Assembly (NCBI GenBank): GCA_004017535.1
Contig: SAJS01000007.1
Location: forward strand, 124,001-188,000
Direction: 5' to 3'
Source of the DNA: Mesorhizobium sp.
GTDB taxonomy: Bacteria > Pseudomonadota > Alphaproteobacteria > Rhizobiales > Rhizobiaceae
DNA: 64,000 nt
The position numbers and the translations under genes are program-made. Below are positions 33,256-47,631 of the stretch, piece after piece (the first letter of the stretch is position 1; every line of letters starts with the position of its first letter). The notes under the pieces are model-generated. The model made no database searches. It saw only the letters and a list, made by a program, of their open reading frames with translations, and was not told where the DNA came from.

Positions 33256-33697
33256 TCTGGTCCAGCAAAGCAGACTTGCGCCAGCGGCGATGATGGTTCA
33301 AATCATGGGCTCCACCACTTTGTTTTTACGCAATTCCGGACGGAAAACCGCTCACAATTTTCCTGGAATTGCTCTAGCGAGACCCGTCATGCAACGTGCA
33401 AAACAGCAATACTGCGAGAGGCATCAGGTTGTCGCCTGCGGTATTTCTTTTGCGCGCGCTGGATATCACTGATCATGCGCTGCTGCCGCCACGAGAACCT
33501 GCAGCGCGCGGAGGAGACGAAGGTCGGCTCGCATGTCGTTCGCGACGGCTGGACCGAAGGGGTGGAAGGCGCGTTGCACCCGGCCCTTCGGCCGGCCATC
33601 AGGCGGGCGTCCGTCCTCGGATAACGCAGCTTAGATAACGCCCTACCGGAACGGACATGCCCGCCGAAGCGATCTCTCCTTCGTACGGACATGACCA
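33256..33697. other. intergenic with one palindromic repeat
   Basis: About 440 bases. It holds a palindromic repeat (33330-33372, listed separately) and a weaker inverted repeat GCGCTGC (33477-33483)/GCAGCGC (33501-33507). No gene was recognised. The promoter for the glutamine-synthetase-like gene must lie in the last 150 bases, but no clear hexamers were identified. Confidence 0.45.
33330..33372. repeat. short palindromic repeat, copy 1
   Basis: GCAATTCC (33330-33337) and GGAATTGC (33365-33372) are perfect inverted arms around a loop containing CGGACGGAAAACCG. A second copy with the same arms and nearly the same loop is at 37259-37302. The shared flank TTGTTTTT precedes both. Confidence 0.8.
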
Positions 33698-37228: not shown

Positions 37229-37258
37229 GGCTGTATCGGCTAGTCTCTTTGTTTTTGC

Positions 37259-37302
37259 GCAATTCCGGACGGAAACCCGCTGCGCACTTTTCCTGGAATT
37301 GC
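37259..37302. repeat. short palindromic repeat, copy 2
   Basis: The same GCAATTCC/GGAATTGC arms as the copy at 33330, with loop CGGACGGAAACCCGCTGCGC. It lies between the convergent DeoR-type and aminothiazoline-hydrolase-type genes; the stop codon of the latter (37304-37306) falls in the repeat's immediate flank. Confidence 0.8.
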
Positions 37303-37830: not shown

Positions 37831-37879
37831 GACCATGATCTTGTCCGCAAGCCGGTTGCCACTTTGCGGAATCATGGTC
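37831..37879. repeat. palindromic element overlapping the dppF stop
   Basis: GACCATGAT (37831-37839) pairs with ATCATGGTC (37871-37879), and the inner TCCGCAA/TTGCGGA arms also pair. The right arm contains the TGA stop codon of the upstream ATPase gene. Confidence 0.8.
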
Positions 37880-38648
37880 GGTTTCTGATCAGCTTCGGCA
37901 TGGCTGCCACCAGCGCCTTGCCGACTGCCGACTGCGGATCGGCGATGACAGCGCGGGCATCGCCGCTTTCGGCGATCCGGCCGGCATCGAGGATGACGAC
38001 GCGGTCGGCCACGGCGCGGATGACGCCGAGGTCATGGGAAATGAACAGATAGGCGATCCGTTCCTGCCGTTGCAGGTCGAGCAGCAATTCCAGGATCTGT
38101 CCGCGCACCGATACGTCGAGGGCCGAGACGGCCTCGTCGAGCACGATCAGCGACGGCCGCGTGGCGATGGCGCGAGCGATCGCGACGCGCTGTCGCTGGC
38201 CGCCGGAAATCTCGTGAATGGCGCGGGCAGCGAGGCCGGTATCGAGGCCGACGCGCTCCAAAAGCGCCGCGATTCGGTGCGGGCGCTCGGAGCGCGGGGC
38301 AATGCCATGTATGCGCAAGGGGTCGTCGAGCACGCGCGCGACGGTGGCGCGGGGGTTGAAGGCGGCGAGCGGATCCTGGAACACCATTTGCAGGCGGGCA
38401 CGGCGGGCGCGCAAAGCGGCGCCTGACAGTGCGAGGAAATTCGCGCCTTCGAAGTCGATGCGGCCGGCATCGGGCTCGATCAGCCGCAGCACCAGCCTTG
38501 CGATGGTCGATTTGCCGCTGCCGGATGGGCCGGCGAGCGCCAGCGTCTCCGCCGGGCCGACGTCGAAGGACACCTCGTCGACTGCCGCGAAAGGCTTGCC
38601 GCCGCGATGGTAGCGCTTGGTGAGATTGGTGACGGCAAGCACGCTCAT
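37872..38648 (-). CDS. peptide-type ABC transporter ATPase (DppF/OppF-like)
   Basis: A 258-residue ATPase: Walker A GPSGSGKST, Q-loop VFQDPLAAFNPR, signature EISGGQRQRVAIARAI, Walker B LIVLDEAVSALD and H-loop FISHDLG. The short length lacks the long C-terminal oligopeptide/dipeptide extension seen in DppF, as is common for rhizobial systems. The start overlaps the DppD-like stop in ATGA. It forms a heterodimeric motor with that protein. Confidence 0.9.
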   Translation of the reverse strand: MSVLAVTNLTKRYHRGGKPFAAVDEVSFDVGPAETLALAGPSGSGKSTIARLVLRLIEPDAGRIDFEGANFLALSGAALRARRARLQMVFQDPLAAFNPRATVARVLDDPLRIHGIAPRSERPHRIAALLERVGLDTGLAARAIHEISGGQRQRVAIARAIATRPSLIVLDEAVSALDVSVRGQILELLLDLQRQERIAYLFISHDLGVIRAVADRVVILDAGRIAESGDARAVIADPQSAVGKALVAAMPKLIRNRP

Positions 38649-39655
38649 GCCGAGGTGCCCTGTCGGTCAAGCTGAGGCTCGGCGTCCAGGCCAAGATGAG
38701 CGTCGAGCAAGGCGCGCGTATAGGCTTGCTGCGGCGCGTTGACGATTTGACTGGTCTCGCCGAGTTCGATCAGTTCGCCACGGCGCAGCACCGCGATGCG
38801 ATCGGCAAGCGAGGCGGCAAGCGCGATGTCGTGGCTGATGAAGATGAGCGTCATGCCGTCCTCGCTGACCAGCCTGCGGATCAGGGCGACGATCTCGGCC
38901 TGGACGATGGTGTCGAGCGCGCTGGTCGCTTCGTCGGCGATCAGGATTTTCGGTCCGGCGGCGATTGCCGCGGCGATCGCCACGCGCTGCTTTTGCCCGC
39001 CGGAGAGCTGGTGCGGGTAGGCGTGGAGGGCCGAGTCCGGGTCAGGGAGGCGGACGCGTTGGAGGAGGGTTTTGGCCTTGGCGTAGGCTTCGCGCCAAGT
39101 GAGGTCGAGATGGGTGCGCGCGACCTCGGCGATCTGCTTGCCGATCGGCATGACCGGGTCGAGACTGGAGGAGGGGTCCTGGAAGACGAAGCCGATGTCG
39201 CGGCCTAGGAGGAGAGGTCTATCATGAAGATGGAAAGGCTGGCGCTCTACGGCGCCCCCCTCTGTCCTGCCGGACATCTCCCCCACTTGGGGGGAGATTG
39301 AGCTGTCGCGATCGGTTTCGCCAACCGCGGGCGTTGCAGGAGGAGAGCCGGCAGCGGAACTGCTGATCTCTCCCCTTGTGGGGGAGATGTCCGGCAGGAC
39401 AGAGGGGAGCGCGAAGGAATGAGGCGCTTGCGATTTCGGTATCTTCCAATTGATGGTCCCGTCAATCTCGCTACCCCGCGCCAACAACCCCGCAACCGCC
39501 AGTGCCAGCGTGCTCTTGCCCGAGCCGCTTTCGCCGATGATTGCCAGGCGCTCGCCAGCCTCCATATCCAGGCTGACGCCCTTCAGCGCCGGCACCTCTA
39601 TGCCGTCGCGCCGATAGGCAATTCTCAGATCGCGAATGGAAAGCAACGCCGTCAC
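38645..39655 (-). CDS. peptide-type ABC transporter ATPase (DppD-like) with in-frame palindromic-element insertion
   Basis: A 336-residue ATPase. Walker A GESGSGKST lies near residue 40 and Q-loop FVFQDPSSSLDP near 155, followed by signature QLSGGQKQRVAIAAAI, Walker B ILIADEATSALD and FISHDIA. Between Walker A and the Q-loop, residues 83-133 are encoded by a 150 bp palindromic repeat (39255-39407) and read LPDISPTRGEI ... SISPQVGEMSGR; without them the protein would be a normal 285 residues. The frame is kept. GTG 39655 overlaps the DppC-like stop. Function may persist because the insertion falls in a variable loop. Confidence 0.85.
   Translation of the reverse strand: MTALLSIRDLRIAYRRDGIEVPALKGVSLDMEAGERLAIIGESGSGKSTLALAVAGLLARGSEIDGTINWKIPKSQAPHSFALPSVLPDISPTRGEISSSAAGSPPATPAVGETDRDSSISPQVGEMSGRTEGGAVERQPFHLHDRPLLLGRDIGFVFQDPSSSLDPVMPIGKQIAEVARTHLDLTWREAYAKAKTLLQRVRLPDPDSALHAYPHQLSGGQKQRVAIAAAIAAGPKILIADEATSALDTIVQAEIVALIRRLVSEDGMTLIFISHDIALAASLADRIAVLRRGELIELGETSQIVNAPQQAYTRALLDAHLGLDAEPQLDRQGTSA
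39255..39407. repeat. palindromic repeat element inside the dppD-like gene
   Basis: Perfect 30-base terminal inverted repeats, 39257-39286 and 39378-39407, beginning CCCCTCTGTCCTGCCGG. The centre contains GATCGGTTTCGCC. A sister element in the same orientation is at 41519-41675. The form is that of the small non-autonomous palindromic elements of Rhizobiales. Confidence 0.88.
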
Positions 39656-40482
39656 GACAGGCTCCTGCGCACCGCGGTGCTCTCCACCACACCTTCGCCC
39701 GCGAGGTAGACGCCGAGCACCGTCAACATCAGTGCGACGCCCGGGACGATCGACAGGAGCGGGGCGGTGCGCAGCACTGCACGCCCCTCGGCGATCATGC
39801 CGCCCCAGGTGACGCGGTTGGGGTCGCCGAGGCCGAGGAAGGAGAGCGCCGCTTCTGTGAGGATCGCGGCGGCGACGATCACCGACGACAGGGCCAGCAC
39901 CGGCGGCAAGGCATTGGGCAACACTTCCCGGAAAGCTATTTCAAGCGGGTGCATGCCGATGACGCGGGCGCCGGCGACACAGTCGCGTTCGCGGATCGAC
40001 AGCACTTCCGCGCGGGCGACGCGCGCCGGCCCGGTCCAGGCGCTGAGCGCGATCGCCGCGACGACGACGCCCAGCGAAGGCCCGATGATGCTTACGAAGG
40101 CCAGCGCCAGTAGGAAGCTTGGCACGGTCTGGAAGGCGTCGGTGATGCGCATCAGCGCTTCGTCGACGAGCCCTCCGGCGAAGCCGGCCAAGGTGCCGAC
40201 CACGGCGCCGATCAGGAGCGCCGCAGCAGCCGCCGCCAGGCCGACCGCCAATGAGGTACGGGCGCCATGGAACAGCTCCGCCAGCACGTCGCGGCCGAGC
40301 CGGTCGGTGCCGAGCGGCAGCGACCAGTCCTGGAAGGGCGGCAGCAGCGCCGGGCCGGCGATGGCCTGCGGATCGCCGGGAAAGAACAGCGGCGCCGTCA
40401 AGGCCATGACGAGGAGGAGGGCGAGGATAAACGCGCCGGCGATCGCTTCCGGCGTGTGCAAGAAACGGCGCAGGCGCTTCAT
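39652..40482 (-). CDS. peptide-type ABC transporter permease (DppC-like)
   Basis: A 276-residue inner-membrane permease. The N-terminal OppC-type segment precedes PLGTDRLGRDVLAELFHGARTSL, a DppC/OppC signature. The EAA loop is present as CVAGARVIGMHPLEIAFREVLPNALPP. There are six hydrophobic segments. ATG 40482 overlaps the DppB-like stop (ATGA) and its own stop overlaps the DppD-like GTG, so the operon is translationally linked throughout. Confidence 0.9.
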   Translation of the reverse strand: MKRLRRFLHTPEAIAGAFILALLLVMALTAPLFFPGDPQAIAGPALLPPFQDWSLPLGTDRLGRDVLAELFHGARTSLAVGLAAAAAALLIGAVVGTLAGFAGGLVDEALMRITDAFQTVPSFLLALAFVSIIGPSLGVVVAAIALSAWTGPARVARAEVLSIRERDCVAGARVIGMHPLEIAFREVLPNALPPVLALSSVIVAAAILTEAALSFLGLGDPNRVTWGGMIAEGRAVLRTAPLLSIVPGVALMLTVLGVYLAGEGVVESTAVRRSLS

Positions 40483-41465
40483 GCGCTCGCCTCGCCGGCG
40501 CCGACGCGCGGATCGAGGACAGCGTAGGCGAGATCGACCAGAAGGTTGATCAGGATGACGAGAACGGCGCTGATCAGGATGATGCCGAGCAGCAGCGGCG
40601 TATCGCGCCCGGCGACGGCTTCCTGCGCCAGCCGGCCGAGGCCGGGCACGGCAAAGACGCTTTCGATGACGACGCTGCCGCCCAGCATCTGCGCCGATTG
40701 CAGGCCGAGCATGGTGACCAATGGCAGAAGCGCGTTGCGGGCTACATGGGCAAGCACGACACGGCGGCGCGGCAGGCCCCTGGCGCGGGCGGCGAGGACA
40801 AAATCCTGCCGCCAGGCTTCGGCCATGCCGGCGCGCATCATGCGCAGGTAGAGCGCGAGATAGATGAAGCCGAGCGCCGAGACCGGCAGCACGAGATGGA
40901 TGGCAATGTCGGTGGCGCGGGAAAATCCGGTTTTGCCGGAGGCGATGGTCTCGATGCCGCCGATCGGCAGCCAGCGCAAATCGACGGCGAAGACGACGAT
41001 GAGCACGAGGCCGAGCCAGAAGCCGGGCACGGCATAGAGCGCCAGCGAGCCGATCGACAGGAAGCGGTCGCGGAAGCTGCCGGGCCGCGCGCCGGCATAG
41101 ATGCCAAGTGCCGAGCCAAGGCCGAAGGAGAGCGCGGTGGCGCTGCCCATCAGGATCAGTGTGGTCGGCAGACGCTCGAGAATGACGTCGCGGATCGGCC
41201 GCGAGAACGTGACGGACTGGCCGAGATCGAGATGCAGCAAGGCCCAAAGGTAGTTCGCCAGCCGTGTCAGCTCGGACTGATCCAAGCCCCAGCGGTGGCG
41301 CAGCAATTCGATCATGCCGGCATCGCCGCCGGTCGAGACGATATAGGCGTCGACCGCGTCGCCGGGAGCGGCTTCGAGCAGCAGGAAGCTGCCGATGACG
41401 ACGATGAGCAGCACGAAGACGCTGCCGACGAGGCGACGGCGGAGGATGGTGAGGGCGCGGGTCAT
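40479..41465 (-). CDS. peptide-type ABC transporter permease (DppB-like)
   Basis: A 328-residue inner-membrane permease. The N-terminal RRLVGSVFVLLIVVIGSFLLLEAAPGD and HLDLGQSVTFSRPIRDVILERLPTTL are DppB/OppB signatures, and the EAA loop is VLAARARGLPRRRVVLAHVARNALLPLVT. It has six hydrophobic segments. It follows the binding-protein gene after 273 bp that hold a palindromic element. Confidence 0.9.
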   Translation of the reverse strand: MTRALTILRRRLVGSVFVLLIVVIGSFLLLEAAPGDAVDAYIVSTGGDAGMIELLRHRWGLDQSELTRLANYLWALLHLDLGQSVTFSRPIRDVILERLPTTLILMGSATALSFGLGSALGIYAGARPGSFRDRFLSIGSLALYAVPGFWLGLVLIVVFAVDLRWLPIGGIETIASGKTGFSRATDIAIHLVLPVSALGFIYLALYLRMMRAGMAEAWRQDFVLAARARGLPRRRVVLAHVARNALLPLVTMLGLQSAQMLGGSVVIESVFAVPGLGRLAQEAVAGRDTPLLLGIILISAVLVILINLLVDLAYAVLDPRVGAGEASA

Positions 41466-41518
41466 GCGCGCCCCGAAGGGATGGCGATACGCTGGCTATT
41501 GAAAAAGCCGAGCCCAGG

Positions 41519-41675
41519 CCCCCCTCTCTGTCCTGCCGGACATCTCCCCCTCAAGGGGGGAGATTGGCTATCAGCAACGGTTTCGCCAATTTTCGAGGTT
41601 GCAGAACTGGCGGGACGGAGGAACTGCTGATCTCCCCCCTTGAGGGGGAGATGTCCGGCAGGACAGAGAGGGGGG
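41519..41675. repeat. palindromic repeat element in the operon intergenic gap
   Basis: A 157 bp element with 46-base perfect inverted arms (41519-41564 and 41630-41675) and a centre containing CAACGGTTTCGCC. It is homologous to the element inside the dppD-like gene and lies in the same orientation. Placed between the binding-protein and DppB-like genes, it can fold into a very strong hairpin and so may reduce downstream expression. Confidence 0.88.
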
Positions 41676-41738
41676 TGACGGAACGCGGCCTCCGGCCAAA
41701 TTCCGATTTCTTCACGAACTCTCATCCGCGCGAGTGTG

Positions 41739-43349
41739 TCACGATTCCAAATAAGTGTCCGCCCAGTTCGACACAGCCCAGCGAGGGTTGTTGGCGATGT
41801 TGCCCACCGTATCGCGGGCCACGCTGATGAAACTCCATTCGGCGACGTTGATTAGCGGCAGGTCGGCGGCGACGTTTTTCTGAAACTCCTTGTAGAGCTC
41901 GGTGCGGGCGGCGGTATCGAGCGTCTCGGACGCCTTGACGATTATTGCGTCTAGCTCGGCGTTCTTGTAGCCGCCCTGGTTGGAGAAGGGCACGCCGTCG
42001 GGAATGCCGCTCTGCACCAGGATGGTGGTCGAGATCGCCGGGTCGCCGCGGAATACCGGCGGGCCGACGGCGAGGTCGAAGGCATGGTCGGTGTAGACGG
42101 CCTTGATGTGGGCCGCCGAGTCGTTGTTGACGATCTGGGCGTCGATGCCGATCGCCGCCAGCGCCTGGCGTAGGTAATCGCCGAACTGCTTCGTCTCGTT
42201 GAAATAAGGTGCCGGCAAAAGCTTCAGCGCAAAGCGCTTGCCGTCGTCGGCGCGCTTGTAGCCGGCCTCGTCCAGCAGAGCGTTGGCCTTGGCGACGTCG
42301 AAAGGATAGGTCGGCACGTCGGCAGTGTAGAATTGCGGGTCGTTCTTCGGCACCGGGCCGGTCGCGGTCGCGGCATAGCCGAGGAAGATCGTCTTGACGA
42401 CGAAATCCTTGTCGATGGCATGGGCAATGGCCTGTCGCACTTTCAGATCGGCCAGCTCCTTGCGGCGGTGGTTGATCTCGACGACGAGCTGGTAGGTCAG
42501 CCCCTCATAGCCCTTGGTGATGACCTTCAGGCCCGGCACCTTGGAGATGCGGTCGAGATCGGCGAGCGGAACGGCGGAGAAGGCGGCGAGCTGTATCTCT
42601 TCCGCTTCTAGCGCAGCCGCGGCGGACGTGCGATCGGGGAGCACCTGGTAGACGATCTCGTCGAGATAGGGCTCGTCCTTGCCCCAATAGGCGTCGTTTC
42701 TCGTCAGCCGGTAATATTGCCCGGCCTTGTATTCGGCGAATTTGAACGGACCGGTGCCGACTGGCGCATTGTTGGCCGGGTTGTCCTCGATCTTGCCGTT
42801 TTCATAAACGTGCTTCGGCACGACGCTCGACAGCGCCGGCAGCGCGTTGCGGATGAGCTGGAACGGCGTCGGCTCGGCGAATGTGAAGACGGCCGTCAGC
42901 TCGTCTGGCGTATCGACGGCTTCGAGGTCCTTGAACACGGTGCGGCCGAGATTTTGCAACGGCTTCCAGATCTGCAGCGCGGAGAAGGCGACGTCGGCGG
43001 AGGTGAAGGGCTTGCCGTCATGCCATTTGACGCCATCGCGCAGCTTGAAGGTCACCGACAGGCCGTCGGCCGCACCTTCCCAGGAAAGCGCGAGGCGCGG
43101 CTGAAGCCCGTCCTTGCCGTCGAAAGAGGCCTCGGCCAGCGTCTCGACGATCTTGCTGGAAATGAAGAAGACGCCGTTGGAGGCAACGATCGCCGGGTTG
43201 AGGTTGCGCGGTTCGGAATCGGCGGCCAGCACGAGGCGTCCGCCTTTCTTCGGCGTCTGCGCGAAGCCGATGGCCGGCAGCGCGGTCGAGGCCAGCAGCA
43301 GCGCCGAACCGGCCAGCAGGCCGCGGCGTGAAATCGTCAATTCGGACAT
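41739..43349 (-). CDS. peptide-type ABC substrate-binding protein (family 5)
   Basis: A 536-residue periplasmic binding protein of the DppA/OppA type. A Tat-like signal (ISRRGLLAG ... ALPAIGFA) precedes the mature part, with LVLAADSEPRNLNPAI, VTFKLRDGVKWHDGKPFTSADVAFS as the SBP_bac_5 signature, and LDEAGYKRADDGKRF. Family 5 proteins bind peptides, opines, sugars or nickel; the M24 peptidase opposite suggests peptide-like or amidated substrates. It is divergent from that peptidase gene across 334 bp carrying two TGGT-N3-ACCA-type sites. Confidence 0.9.
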   Translation of the reverse strand: MSELTISRRGLLAGSALLLASTALPAIGFAQTPKKGGRLVLAADSEPRNLNPAIVASNGVFFISSKIVETLAEASFDGKDGLQPRLALSWEGAADGLSVTFKLRDGVKWHDGKPFTSADVAFSALQIWKPLQNLGRTVFKDLEAVDTPDELTAVFTFAEPTPFQLIRNALPALSSVVPKHVYENGKIEDNPANNAPVGTGPFKFAEYKAGQYYRLTRNDAYWGKDEPYLDEIVYQVLPDRTSAAAALEAEEIQLAAFSAVPLADLDRISKVPGLKVITKGYEGLTYQLVVEINHRRKELADLKVRQAIAHAIDKDFVVKTIFLGYAATATGPVPKNDPQFYTADVPTYPFDVAKANALLDEAGYKRADDGKRFALKLLPAPYFNETKQFGDYLRQALAAIGIDAQIVNNDSAAHIKAVYTDHAFDLAVGPPVFRGDPAISTTILVQSGIPDGVPFSNQGGYKNAELDAIIVKASETLDTAARTELYKEFQKNVAADLPLINVAEWSFISVARDTVGNIANNPRWAVSNWADTYLES

Positions 43350-47466: not shown

Positions 47467-47576
47467 TGCGCCCACCCTTAAGCTCCTCGGCAAAGGCCTC
47501 GTCGCTGGTGGGGACCTAATTTTTTGCCCCACCCGTAAGCTCCTCGGCAAAGCCTCATCGCTGGTGGGGACCCCGT
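47467..47576. repeat. tandem pair of about 50-base units, period 57
   Basis: Two units share TAAGCTCCTCGGCAAAG (47479-47495 and 47536-47552), with CCCACC before and GGTGGGGACC after in both. Each unit can also fold, CCCACC pairing with GGTGGG. The pair lies between the divergent UPF0261 and TetR genes. Confidence 0.75.
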
Positions 47577-47631
47577 CATTTGCCCGGCGTTGCGCCATTG
47601 CAAATTTTTGAGACGCGCGTATCGTATTGAT

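What the first reader, a model, noticed from the sequence alone, without database searches (positions are those of the whole stretch)
39255..39407. Palindromic repeat element inserted in frame inside an ABC ATPase gene
Seen: a 150 bp element with 30-base perfect inverted ends adds about 51 residues between Walker A and the Q-loop while keeping the frame; a homologous element lies 2.2 kb away in the same operon. Known: Rickettsia palindromic elements behave likewise. Inference: the ATPase either tolerates a new surface loop or is impaired.
Basis: partly seen in the sequence, partly recalled or inferred. Interest (0 to 1): 0.75.

Follow-up and report, generated by a model that had tools for sequence, protein, structure and literature searches.

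The report
Invertible palindromic insert in ATPase gene
A repeated, hairpin-forming DNA element sits inside the gene of a peptide-transporter motor protein without breaking its reading frame, and the same gene in many related soil bacteria carries it too, often with its middle turned around, so the protein seems to tolerate a foreign loop.

Summary
The window is Mesorhizobium-like. A palindromic repeat (core 153 nt, 39255-39407) lies in frame in a DppD/OppD-type ATPase gene between Walker A and the Q-loop. 23 of 23 named orthologues outside the genus have 2-5 residues there; the window has 75. Of 128 genus orthologues, 69 carry the full element (66 in frame), 33 a remnant (30 of 30 without Ns in frame), 26 have 12 nt or less. 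Backbone dN/dS is the same with and without it (0.198, 0.197), so it looks tolerated. The same family sits in cobN and cobG; 22 of 22 and 23 of 23 same-genus gaps there are in frame. Flanks, spacer and gene have largely separate histories. The arm motif occurs in 90 of 199 sampled genomes of the family, 0 of 192 elsewhere in the order. It works like Rickettsia palindromic elements but is not shown to be one. Structure, activity and mobility untested.

The parts
38645..39655 (-). DppD/OppD-type ABC transporter ATPase gene carrying the insert (336 aa)
   Evidence: ORF; Pfam ABC_tran E 4.9e-27; best NCBIfam hits are peptide-transporter ATPases, below their cut-offs
39221..39445 (-). whole block between W70 and RPLLLG (225 nt, residues 71-145), 2-5 residues in out-of-genus orthologues
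39255..39407 (.). core of the palindromic element (153 nt = 51 codons)
39252..39298 (.). left inverted arm (encodes the ISPQVGEMSGRTEGG end)
   Evidence: I4
39366..39412 (.). right inverted arm (encodes the PSVLPDISPTRGEI start)
   Evidence: I4
39299..39365 (.). 67-nt spacer, found in two orientations among orthologues
41519..41675 (.). second, intergenic copy of the element in the same operon
   Evidence: RNA hairpin -126.6 kcal/mol
37872..38648 (-). second ABC ATPase gene of the operon
   Evidence: Pfam ABC_tran
39652..40482 (-). permease gene (OppC_N, BPD_transp_1)
40479..41465 (-). permease gene (BPD_transp_1)
41739..43349 (-). solute-binding protein gene (SBP_bac_5)

Best explanation
A copy (or, in different lineages, more than one copy) of a family-specific palindromic repeat entered a length-variable loop of a DppD/OppD-type ATPase gene in Mesorhizobium or an ancestor. 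In one phase the repeat can be read through in either orientation: flipping it leaves the peptides of the two arms unchanged (PSVLPDISPxRGEI at the start, ISPLxGEMSGRTEGG at the end), and about half to three fifths of the family's spacers have no stop in that phase. The protein so gains a loop of about 70 residues that its fold tolerates. Afterwards selection keeps the frame but hardly the loop's sequence: the insert drifts nearly neutrally, is trimmed by in-frame deletions or lost, has its spacer inverted (probably by recombination or template switching between the arms), and is exchanged between alleles of different species. Shown here: presence, derived state, frame keeping, near-neutral spacer, both orientations, mosaic histories, the same pattern in cobN and cobG. 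Inferred: the insertion event, the inversion mechanism, allele exchange as the cause of the mosaic, that the protein works, and that the loop is on the surface.
For: Derived state: 23 of 23 named out-of-genus orthologues have gaps of 6-15 nt. Frame: 66 of 69 full copies and 30 of 30 N-free remnants, the latter with 21 distinct lengths, are multiples of 3. Same-operon intergenic copy: 0 of 24 multiples of 3. 36 full copies of the own genome: 12/9/15 for remainders 0/1/2. cobN 22 of 22 and cobG 23 of 23 same-genus gaps in frame, 13 full cobG cores being 153, 168, 171 or 180 nt. Function kept: motifs and dN/dS. Spacer near neutral: pN/pS 0.82 (A) and 0.91 (B). Inversion: two clear score classes, 45 A / 24 B; 22 changes on the gene tree, B no more clustered than shuffled labels; all 7 populated pairings of the classified end types hold both orientations; both orientations also at intergenic loci (L250 14/14, L245 27/7, L251 20/2). 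Exchange: the 25 closest gene pairs keep 0.88 of the average spacer distance, against 0.18-0.72 in 31 backbone windows; one allele's best 6 matches in other genomes (99-92%) all lie in the ATPase locus, the best elsewhere being 91% (which scored only 5 candidates per genome).
Against: Three of 69 full copies are out of frame (L110, L129, L149). The outer 24 nt of the two main N-flank types are not detectably homologous (456 of 2000 shuffles as high), so a single insertion is not proven. Core length can be constant without coding (152 nt in 28 of 28 at the L250 locus and 33 of 34 at the L245 locus), so constant length alone shows nothing; the case rests on remnants, flanks and cobG. The spacer-gene correlation (0.146) lies inside the range of control windows (0.026-0.731), and spacers at the intergenic L251 locus are just as uncoupled from their flank (rho 0.029, 22 copies), so turnover is not special to the gene. 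Empty alleles do cluster on the tree (12 changes, 0 of 500 shuffles as low). Covariation: the number of pairs with a change on both sides (3) is not above shuffles (291 of 500); it rests on one pair. The H-loop pattern is missing in 2 of 64 insert-bearing ORFs. No protein, structure or transport evidence.
Confidence: 0.76

Rival explanations
1. Insertion hotspot: the element entered the same loop several times independently, in either orientation and with different end types, and losses restored the short state; no in-place inversion is needed.
For: Empty, remnant and full alleles are interspersed on the gene tree (empty 12 changes, full/not full 33); the two N-flank types are not detectably homologous; spacers barely follow the gene tree.
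Against: Each event would have to hit the same place and frame. The commonest distance to the arm is the same for both N-flank types (43 nt; 18 and 21 alleles). The closest matches of the one allele tested are allelic. Orientation varies within fixed pairs of end types.
Confidence: 0.2
2. The insert impairs the ATPase and the gene is on its way to being a pseudogene.
For: Three of 69 full copies are frameshifted; the block is long and sits between Walker A and the Q-loop.
Against: Equal dN/dS (0.198 with, 0.197 without), four motif patterns in 64 of 64 insert-bearing ORFs, frame kept in 66 full and 30 remnant alleles.
Confidence: 0.05
3. The insert is kept for a function of its own: the hairpin in DNA or mRNA, or the peptide, is selected for within these genes.
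For: Arms pair in 96.8% of cells, with three complementary states at pair 30/131 (UA 23, AU 20, GC 16); RNA hairpin -120.5 kcal/mol, z -11.7; arms far more conserved than the spacer.
Against: 59 of 128 alleles are not full; spacer near neutral; intergenic copies keep similar arms, so conservation can come from the repeat family or arm-to-arm correction.
Confidence: 0.12

Closest known systems
Rickettsia palindromic elements (RPE; passages of PMC10969869 and PMC3733652 seen, originals not held)
   Same: About 150 bp, palindromic, repeated, inserted in frame in unrelated genes, with a recurrent peptide
   Different: Large free-living genomes; insert at the same place in 69 of 128 species examined; spacer in both orientations. 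The 54-residue insert matches no NCBIfam (E up to 1) or Pfam (E up to 10) family; DNA similarity to RPE families was not tested
RIME, Rhizobium-specific intergenic mosaic elements (recalled; paper not held)
   Same: Palindromic, mosaic, mostly intergenic repeat of rhizobia
   Different: Sequence identity to RIME1/2 could not be tested; RIMEs are recalled as intergenic
Intragenic REPs with GTAG or CGTC tags (PMC3733652, passages seen)
   Same: Small palindromic repeats inside ORFs of several bacteria
   Different: Here 43-47-nt arms around a spacer; no Y1 (RAYT) transposase match in the own genome; the tags themselves were not tested
MITEs (PMC10969869, passages seen)
   Same: Short inverted-repeat elements without a transposase gene that can make in-frame fusions
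   Different: No target-site duplication or matching transposase established here

Membership tests
Rickettsia palindromic elements | Palindromic repeat of about 150 bp present in many copies | tested here: met
   36 full copies by regex in stretches fetched around arm hits; 108 arm hits in the own genome
Rickettsia palindromic elements | In-frame insertion in unrelated protein genes, one preferred frame | tested here: met
   ATPase, cobN, cobG, all read in the same phase
Rickettsia palindromic elements | Sequence kinship with RPE families | tested here: inconclusive
   No NCBIfam or Pfam family for the 54-aa insert; whether an RPE model is in the library was not checked
Rickettsia palindromic elements | Occurs in Rickettsia | not tested
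   Rickettsia was not searched; within the order the arm pattern was found only in the window's family (5 of 7 sampled family genomes, 0 of 192 others)
RIME | Restricted to rhizobial bacteria | tested here: inconclusive
   Fits within the order and in plasmids (167 records, all ten genus names listed rhizobial or kin); outside the order no chromosome was searched
RIME | Sequence of RIME1 or RIME2 | not testable with these tools
   Original paper not held; no sequence at hand
RIME | Intergenic location | tested here: not met
   Not met for this copy and those in cobN and cobG. Of 36 own copies, 12 spanning ORFs with 60 aa or more left and 45 or more right were checked: three are these genes, nine have no Pfam or NCBIfam match
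REP moved by RAYT | Y1 (RAYT) transposase in the genome | tested here: not met
   PF01797: 0 matches in the own genome; control positive in 5 of 14 genomes
MITE | Target-site duplication and a transposase with matching ends | not tested
   Filled and empty sites differed too much by eye to read a duplication
DppD/OppD-type ABC ATPase | Walker A, Q-loop, signature, Walker B | tested here: met
   64 of 64 insert-bearing ORFs; Pfam ABC_tran

The most novel reading that the evidence does not exclude
A self-inverting coding cassette: a palindromic element resident in conserved enzyme genes (a transporter ATPase, cobN, cobG) whose arms recombine often enough that the enclosed peptide flips orientation again and again while staying in frame, so that orthologous proteins, perhaps even cells of one strain, carry two alternative loops.
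Probability: 0.3. Interest if true: 0.8.

Novelty: new variant of a known kind. Interest (0 to 1): 0.62.

Why it matters
[quoted passage not shown] Here the behaviour appears in large free-living genomes, at one site of one gene, with full, inverted, trimmed and empty alleles side by side in 128 species. That makes an old question testable in harmless laboratory rhizobia: how selfish DNA becomes part of a working protein, and whether inverted repeats inside genes flip in nature. It also warns that rhizobial assemblies can break at such inserts.

Tried and rejected
Considered and dropped: (1) that inversion is special to intragenic copies: two intergenic loci looked nearly fixed (copy 2: 23/1; L251: 20/2, whose copy-2 total of 25/1 includes two ATPase copies, L012 and L023, removed here), but two more showed 27/7 and 14/14. 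(2) Ectopic gene conversion as the main source of spacer turnover: best matches were allelic, but only one allele was tested and one search scored 5 candidates per genome. (3) RAYT-driven mobility. (4) Rfam: 4 matches, all microRNA families below their gathering scores, taken as hairpin artefacts. (5) Sense-strand preference of orientation in own intergenic copies: 10 to 6 by eye. (6) Proof of a single insertion from flank homology: not significant. One search flagged L236 as coding on both sides in one frame with a stop in the element; not followed.

Sampling and dropped rows: one search found matches in 146 of 146 genomes; I fetched 130 (30 loci, 100 regions); 128 gave a gap (L109 and L173 lack the N part); 16 genomes were not fetched. 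'Remnant' means only a gap of more than 12 nt without both arms; the shortest (18-36 nt) may not derive from the element. One search used 120 of 128 (complete in-frame ORF by my start and stop rule); its Q-loop pattern also fails in 7 of 26 empty and 1 of 30 remnant ORFs, so it is imperfect. One search used 62 of 69 full copies (L097, L123, L138, L147 of other length; L124, L129, L149 left out). Loci are best-scoring ones and favour the query's orientation; 20 genomes with broken matches were added for L251 (0 full elements) and 20 for L245 (6 full), none for L250. Two MAGs titled Mesorhizobium (L065, L073) lack the block, and a record titled Rhizobiales bacterium (L039) has it; they are not in the count of 23. 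One search missed copies because of a regex mode and was redone. One of 13 cobG orientations is weakly scored (L265). My first notebook entries hold rough counts (for example 25/25 and 22/22 for cobN and cobG) that the report replaces.

Full report
Where it is. The window lies in an unnamed 6.86-Mb genome; its closest named orthologues are Mesorhizobium, so I call it Mesorhizobium-like. The gene 38645-39655(-) encodes an ABC ATPase of the dipeptide/oligopeptide type, next to a second ATPase, two permeases and an SBP_bac_5 binding protein. The best NCBIfam models are peptide-transporter ATPases, but below their cut-offs.

The element. Two 47-nt arms, 91% complementary, enclose a 67-nt spacer. 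The sense RNA of the copy folds to -120.5 kcal/mol, z -11.7. The intergenic copy 2.2 kb away has perfect 46-nt arms and folds to -126.6 kcal/mol. The own genome holds 53+55 arm hits with up to 3 mismatches, against 0 for the reversed control. In stretches fetched around listed hits a regex finds 36 full copies. Twelve ORFs, open through an element with at least 60 residues before and 45 after it, were found: three are this ATPase, CobN and CobG, the last two by NCBIfam equivalogs above cut-off and all three read in the same phase; the other nine match no Pfam or NCBIfam family and are probably spurious in this GC-rich DNA.

Is it an insertion? Of the 80 named loci, 23 outside the genus (Aminobacter, Tianweitania, Rhizobium, Neorhizobium, Brucella/Ochrobactrum, Falsochrobactrum, Aquamicrobium, Rhodobacter, Fuscovulum and an uncultured Rhizobiaceae) have 6-15 nt at the site; four Clavibacter loci have an unrelated 54 nt. 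In the genus, one search found matches in 146 of 146 genomes; 130 were fetched and 128 read: 69 full elements, 33 remnants of 18-181 nt, 26 with 12 nt or less. So the block is derived, widespread and differs between species.

Does the frame hold? 66 of 69 full copies have a gap divisible by 3 and no stop; L110, L129 and L149 do not. 30 of 30 remnants without Ns are in frame, with 21 distinct lengths; the three out-of-frame remnants contain N runs. Controls: the intergenic copy of the same operon is a multiple of 3 in 0 of 24 loci where it was found, out of 52 named loci looked at; the 36 own copies give 12/9/15 for remainders 0/1/2. Openness alone is cheap: of 66 strands of 33 copies outside those three genes, 40 are open in the relevant phase through first arm and spacer and 33 through the core. 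A caution: core length can be constant without coding (152 nt in 28 of 28 and 33 of 34 at two intergenic loci), so the weight is on remnants, variable flanks and cobG, whose 13 full cores are 153, 168, 171 or 180 nt. In cobN 22 of 22 and in cobG 23 of 23 same-genus gaps are in frame, with or without the element; 12 and 13 of them hold a full element by regex.

Is the protein harmed? Walker A, Q-loop, signature and Walker B patterns are present in 64 of 64 complete insert-bearing ORFs, the H-loop pattern in 62 of 64. Median backbone dN/dS is 0.198 with the full insert, 0.197 in empty and 0.202 in remnant alleles. The spacer has pN/pS 0.82 (38 A alleles) and 0.91 (22 B alleles), so its amino acids are nearly unconstrained. 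In the two profile matches to solved DppD-type chains that were printed, the insert falls in an unaligned stretch between the region after Walker A and the Q-loop.

Two orientations. Scored against one consensus, spacers fall into two classes, 45 A and 24 B. On a tree of 128 rows built without the insert, orientation needs 22 changes among the 69 full alleles, and B is no more clustered than shuffled labels (23 changes, shuffled mean 22.4); empty alleles do cluster (12 changes, shuffled mean 24.0). Both orientations occur in all 7 populated pairings of the classified end types (4 alleles have an unclassified N-flank), and in cobN (5 A, 7 B) and cobG (7 A, 6 B). It is not special to genes: four intergenic loci gave 23/1 (two ATPase rows removed), 20/2, 27/7 and 14/14. 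Inversion between the arms is the simplest reading; re-insertion is the rival.

Mosaic history. Spacer distance hardly follows gene distance (rho 0.146; 31 backbone windows of the same size average 0.392, range 0.026-0.731). The 25 closest gene pairs still show 88% of the average spacer distance, against 18-72% in those windows. Some pairs have nearly identical spacers (98.5%) although the genes differ by 11-15%. N-flank, spacer, C-flank and gene correlate at |rho| 0.23 or less. For one allele the six best matches in other genomes are all at the ATPase locus (99-92%), the best elsewhere 91% (5 candidates scored per genome). Spacers at the intergenic L251 locus are equally uncoupled from their flank (rho 0.029). 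I read this as exchange between alleles plus inversion and drift; homology of the two N-flank types could not be shown.

Arms. 96.8% of 2666 cells pair. One position (30/131) shows three complementary states; of the 43 pairs 12 never vary, 13 vary on one side only and 15 depart only by unpaired cells, and the count of pairs changed on both sides (3) is not above shuffles. This is modest evidence for structure or arm-to-arm correction.

Distribution. Arm pattern with up to 2 mismatches: 90 of 199 sampled genomes of the family, none in the reversed control, and 0 of 192 genomes of other families of the order. Similar DNA occurs in 167 plasmid records, 52 of them over at least 80% of the query, of Rhizobium, Sinorhizobium, Shinella, Phyllobacterium and kin.

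Literature. Nine searches listed no title or abstract start on protein-coding palindromes of rhizobia; only the listed rows were looked at, and one search found no paper holding the arm DNA or the peptide strings. Passages were seen of PMC10969869, PMC2873474, PMC3733652 and PMC2635572; PMC5082802 on Bradyrhizobium repeats was listed but not read. Intragenic palindromes outside Rickettsia are known (PMC3733652), so the kind is not new; I found no report of this genus-wide, invertible case.

Noticed in passing
41466-41738: The second copy lies between the binding-protein gene and the first permease gene, a place where palindromic repeats are recalled to stabilise upstream mRNA.
   Followed up: partly
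33318-33352 and 37247-37281: Another intergenic repeat, 94% identical over 35 nt (D12).
   Followed up: no
G000 C11:228367-228508, C33:40577-40711, C55:39676-39831, C55:75489-75637: Pairs of arms in the opposite arrangement (pointing outward), starts 113-134 nt apart, a different mosaic of the same unit.
   Followed up: no
L185, L198, L209, L109, L173: Assemblies have N runs in the insert (first three) or a contig end near the element (last two); such inserts may be undercounted.
   Followed up: partly
L294 1801-1956: In a Shinella plasmid the element overlaps the annotated start of an ABC ATPase gene by 28 nt.
   Followed up: no
47493-47585: Two direct copies of 37 nt, 81% identical, 56 nt apart (D19).
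   Followed up: no
L236 2546-2697: Flanks of this own copy score as coding in one frame while the element has a stop in it: two genes in phase, or an interrupted one.
   Followed up: no
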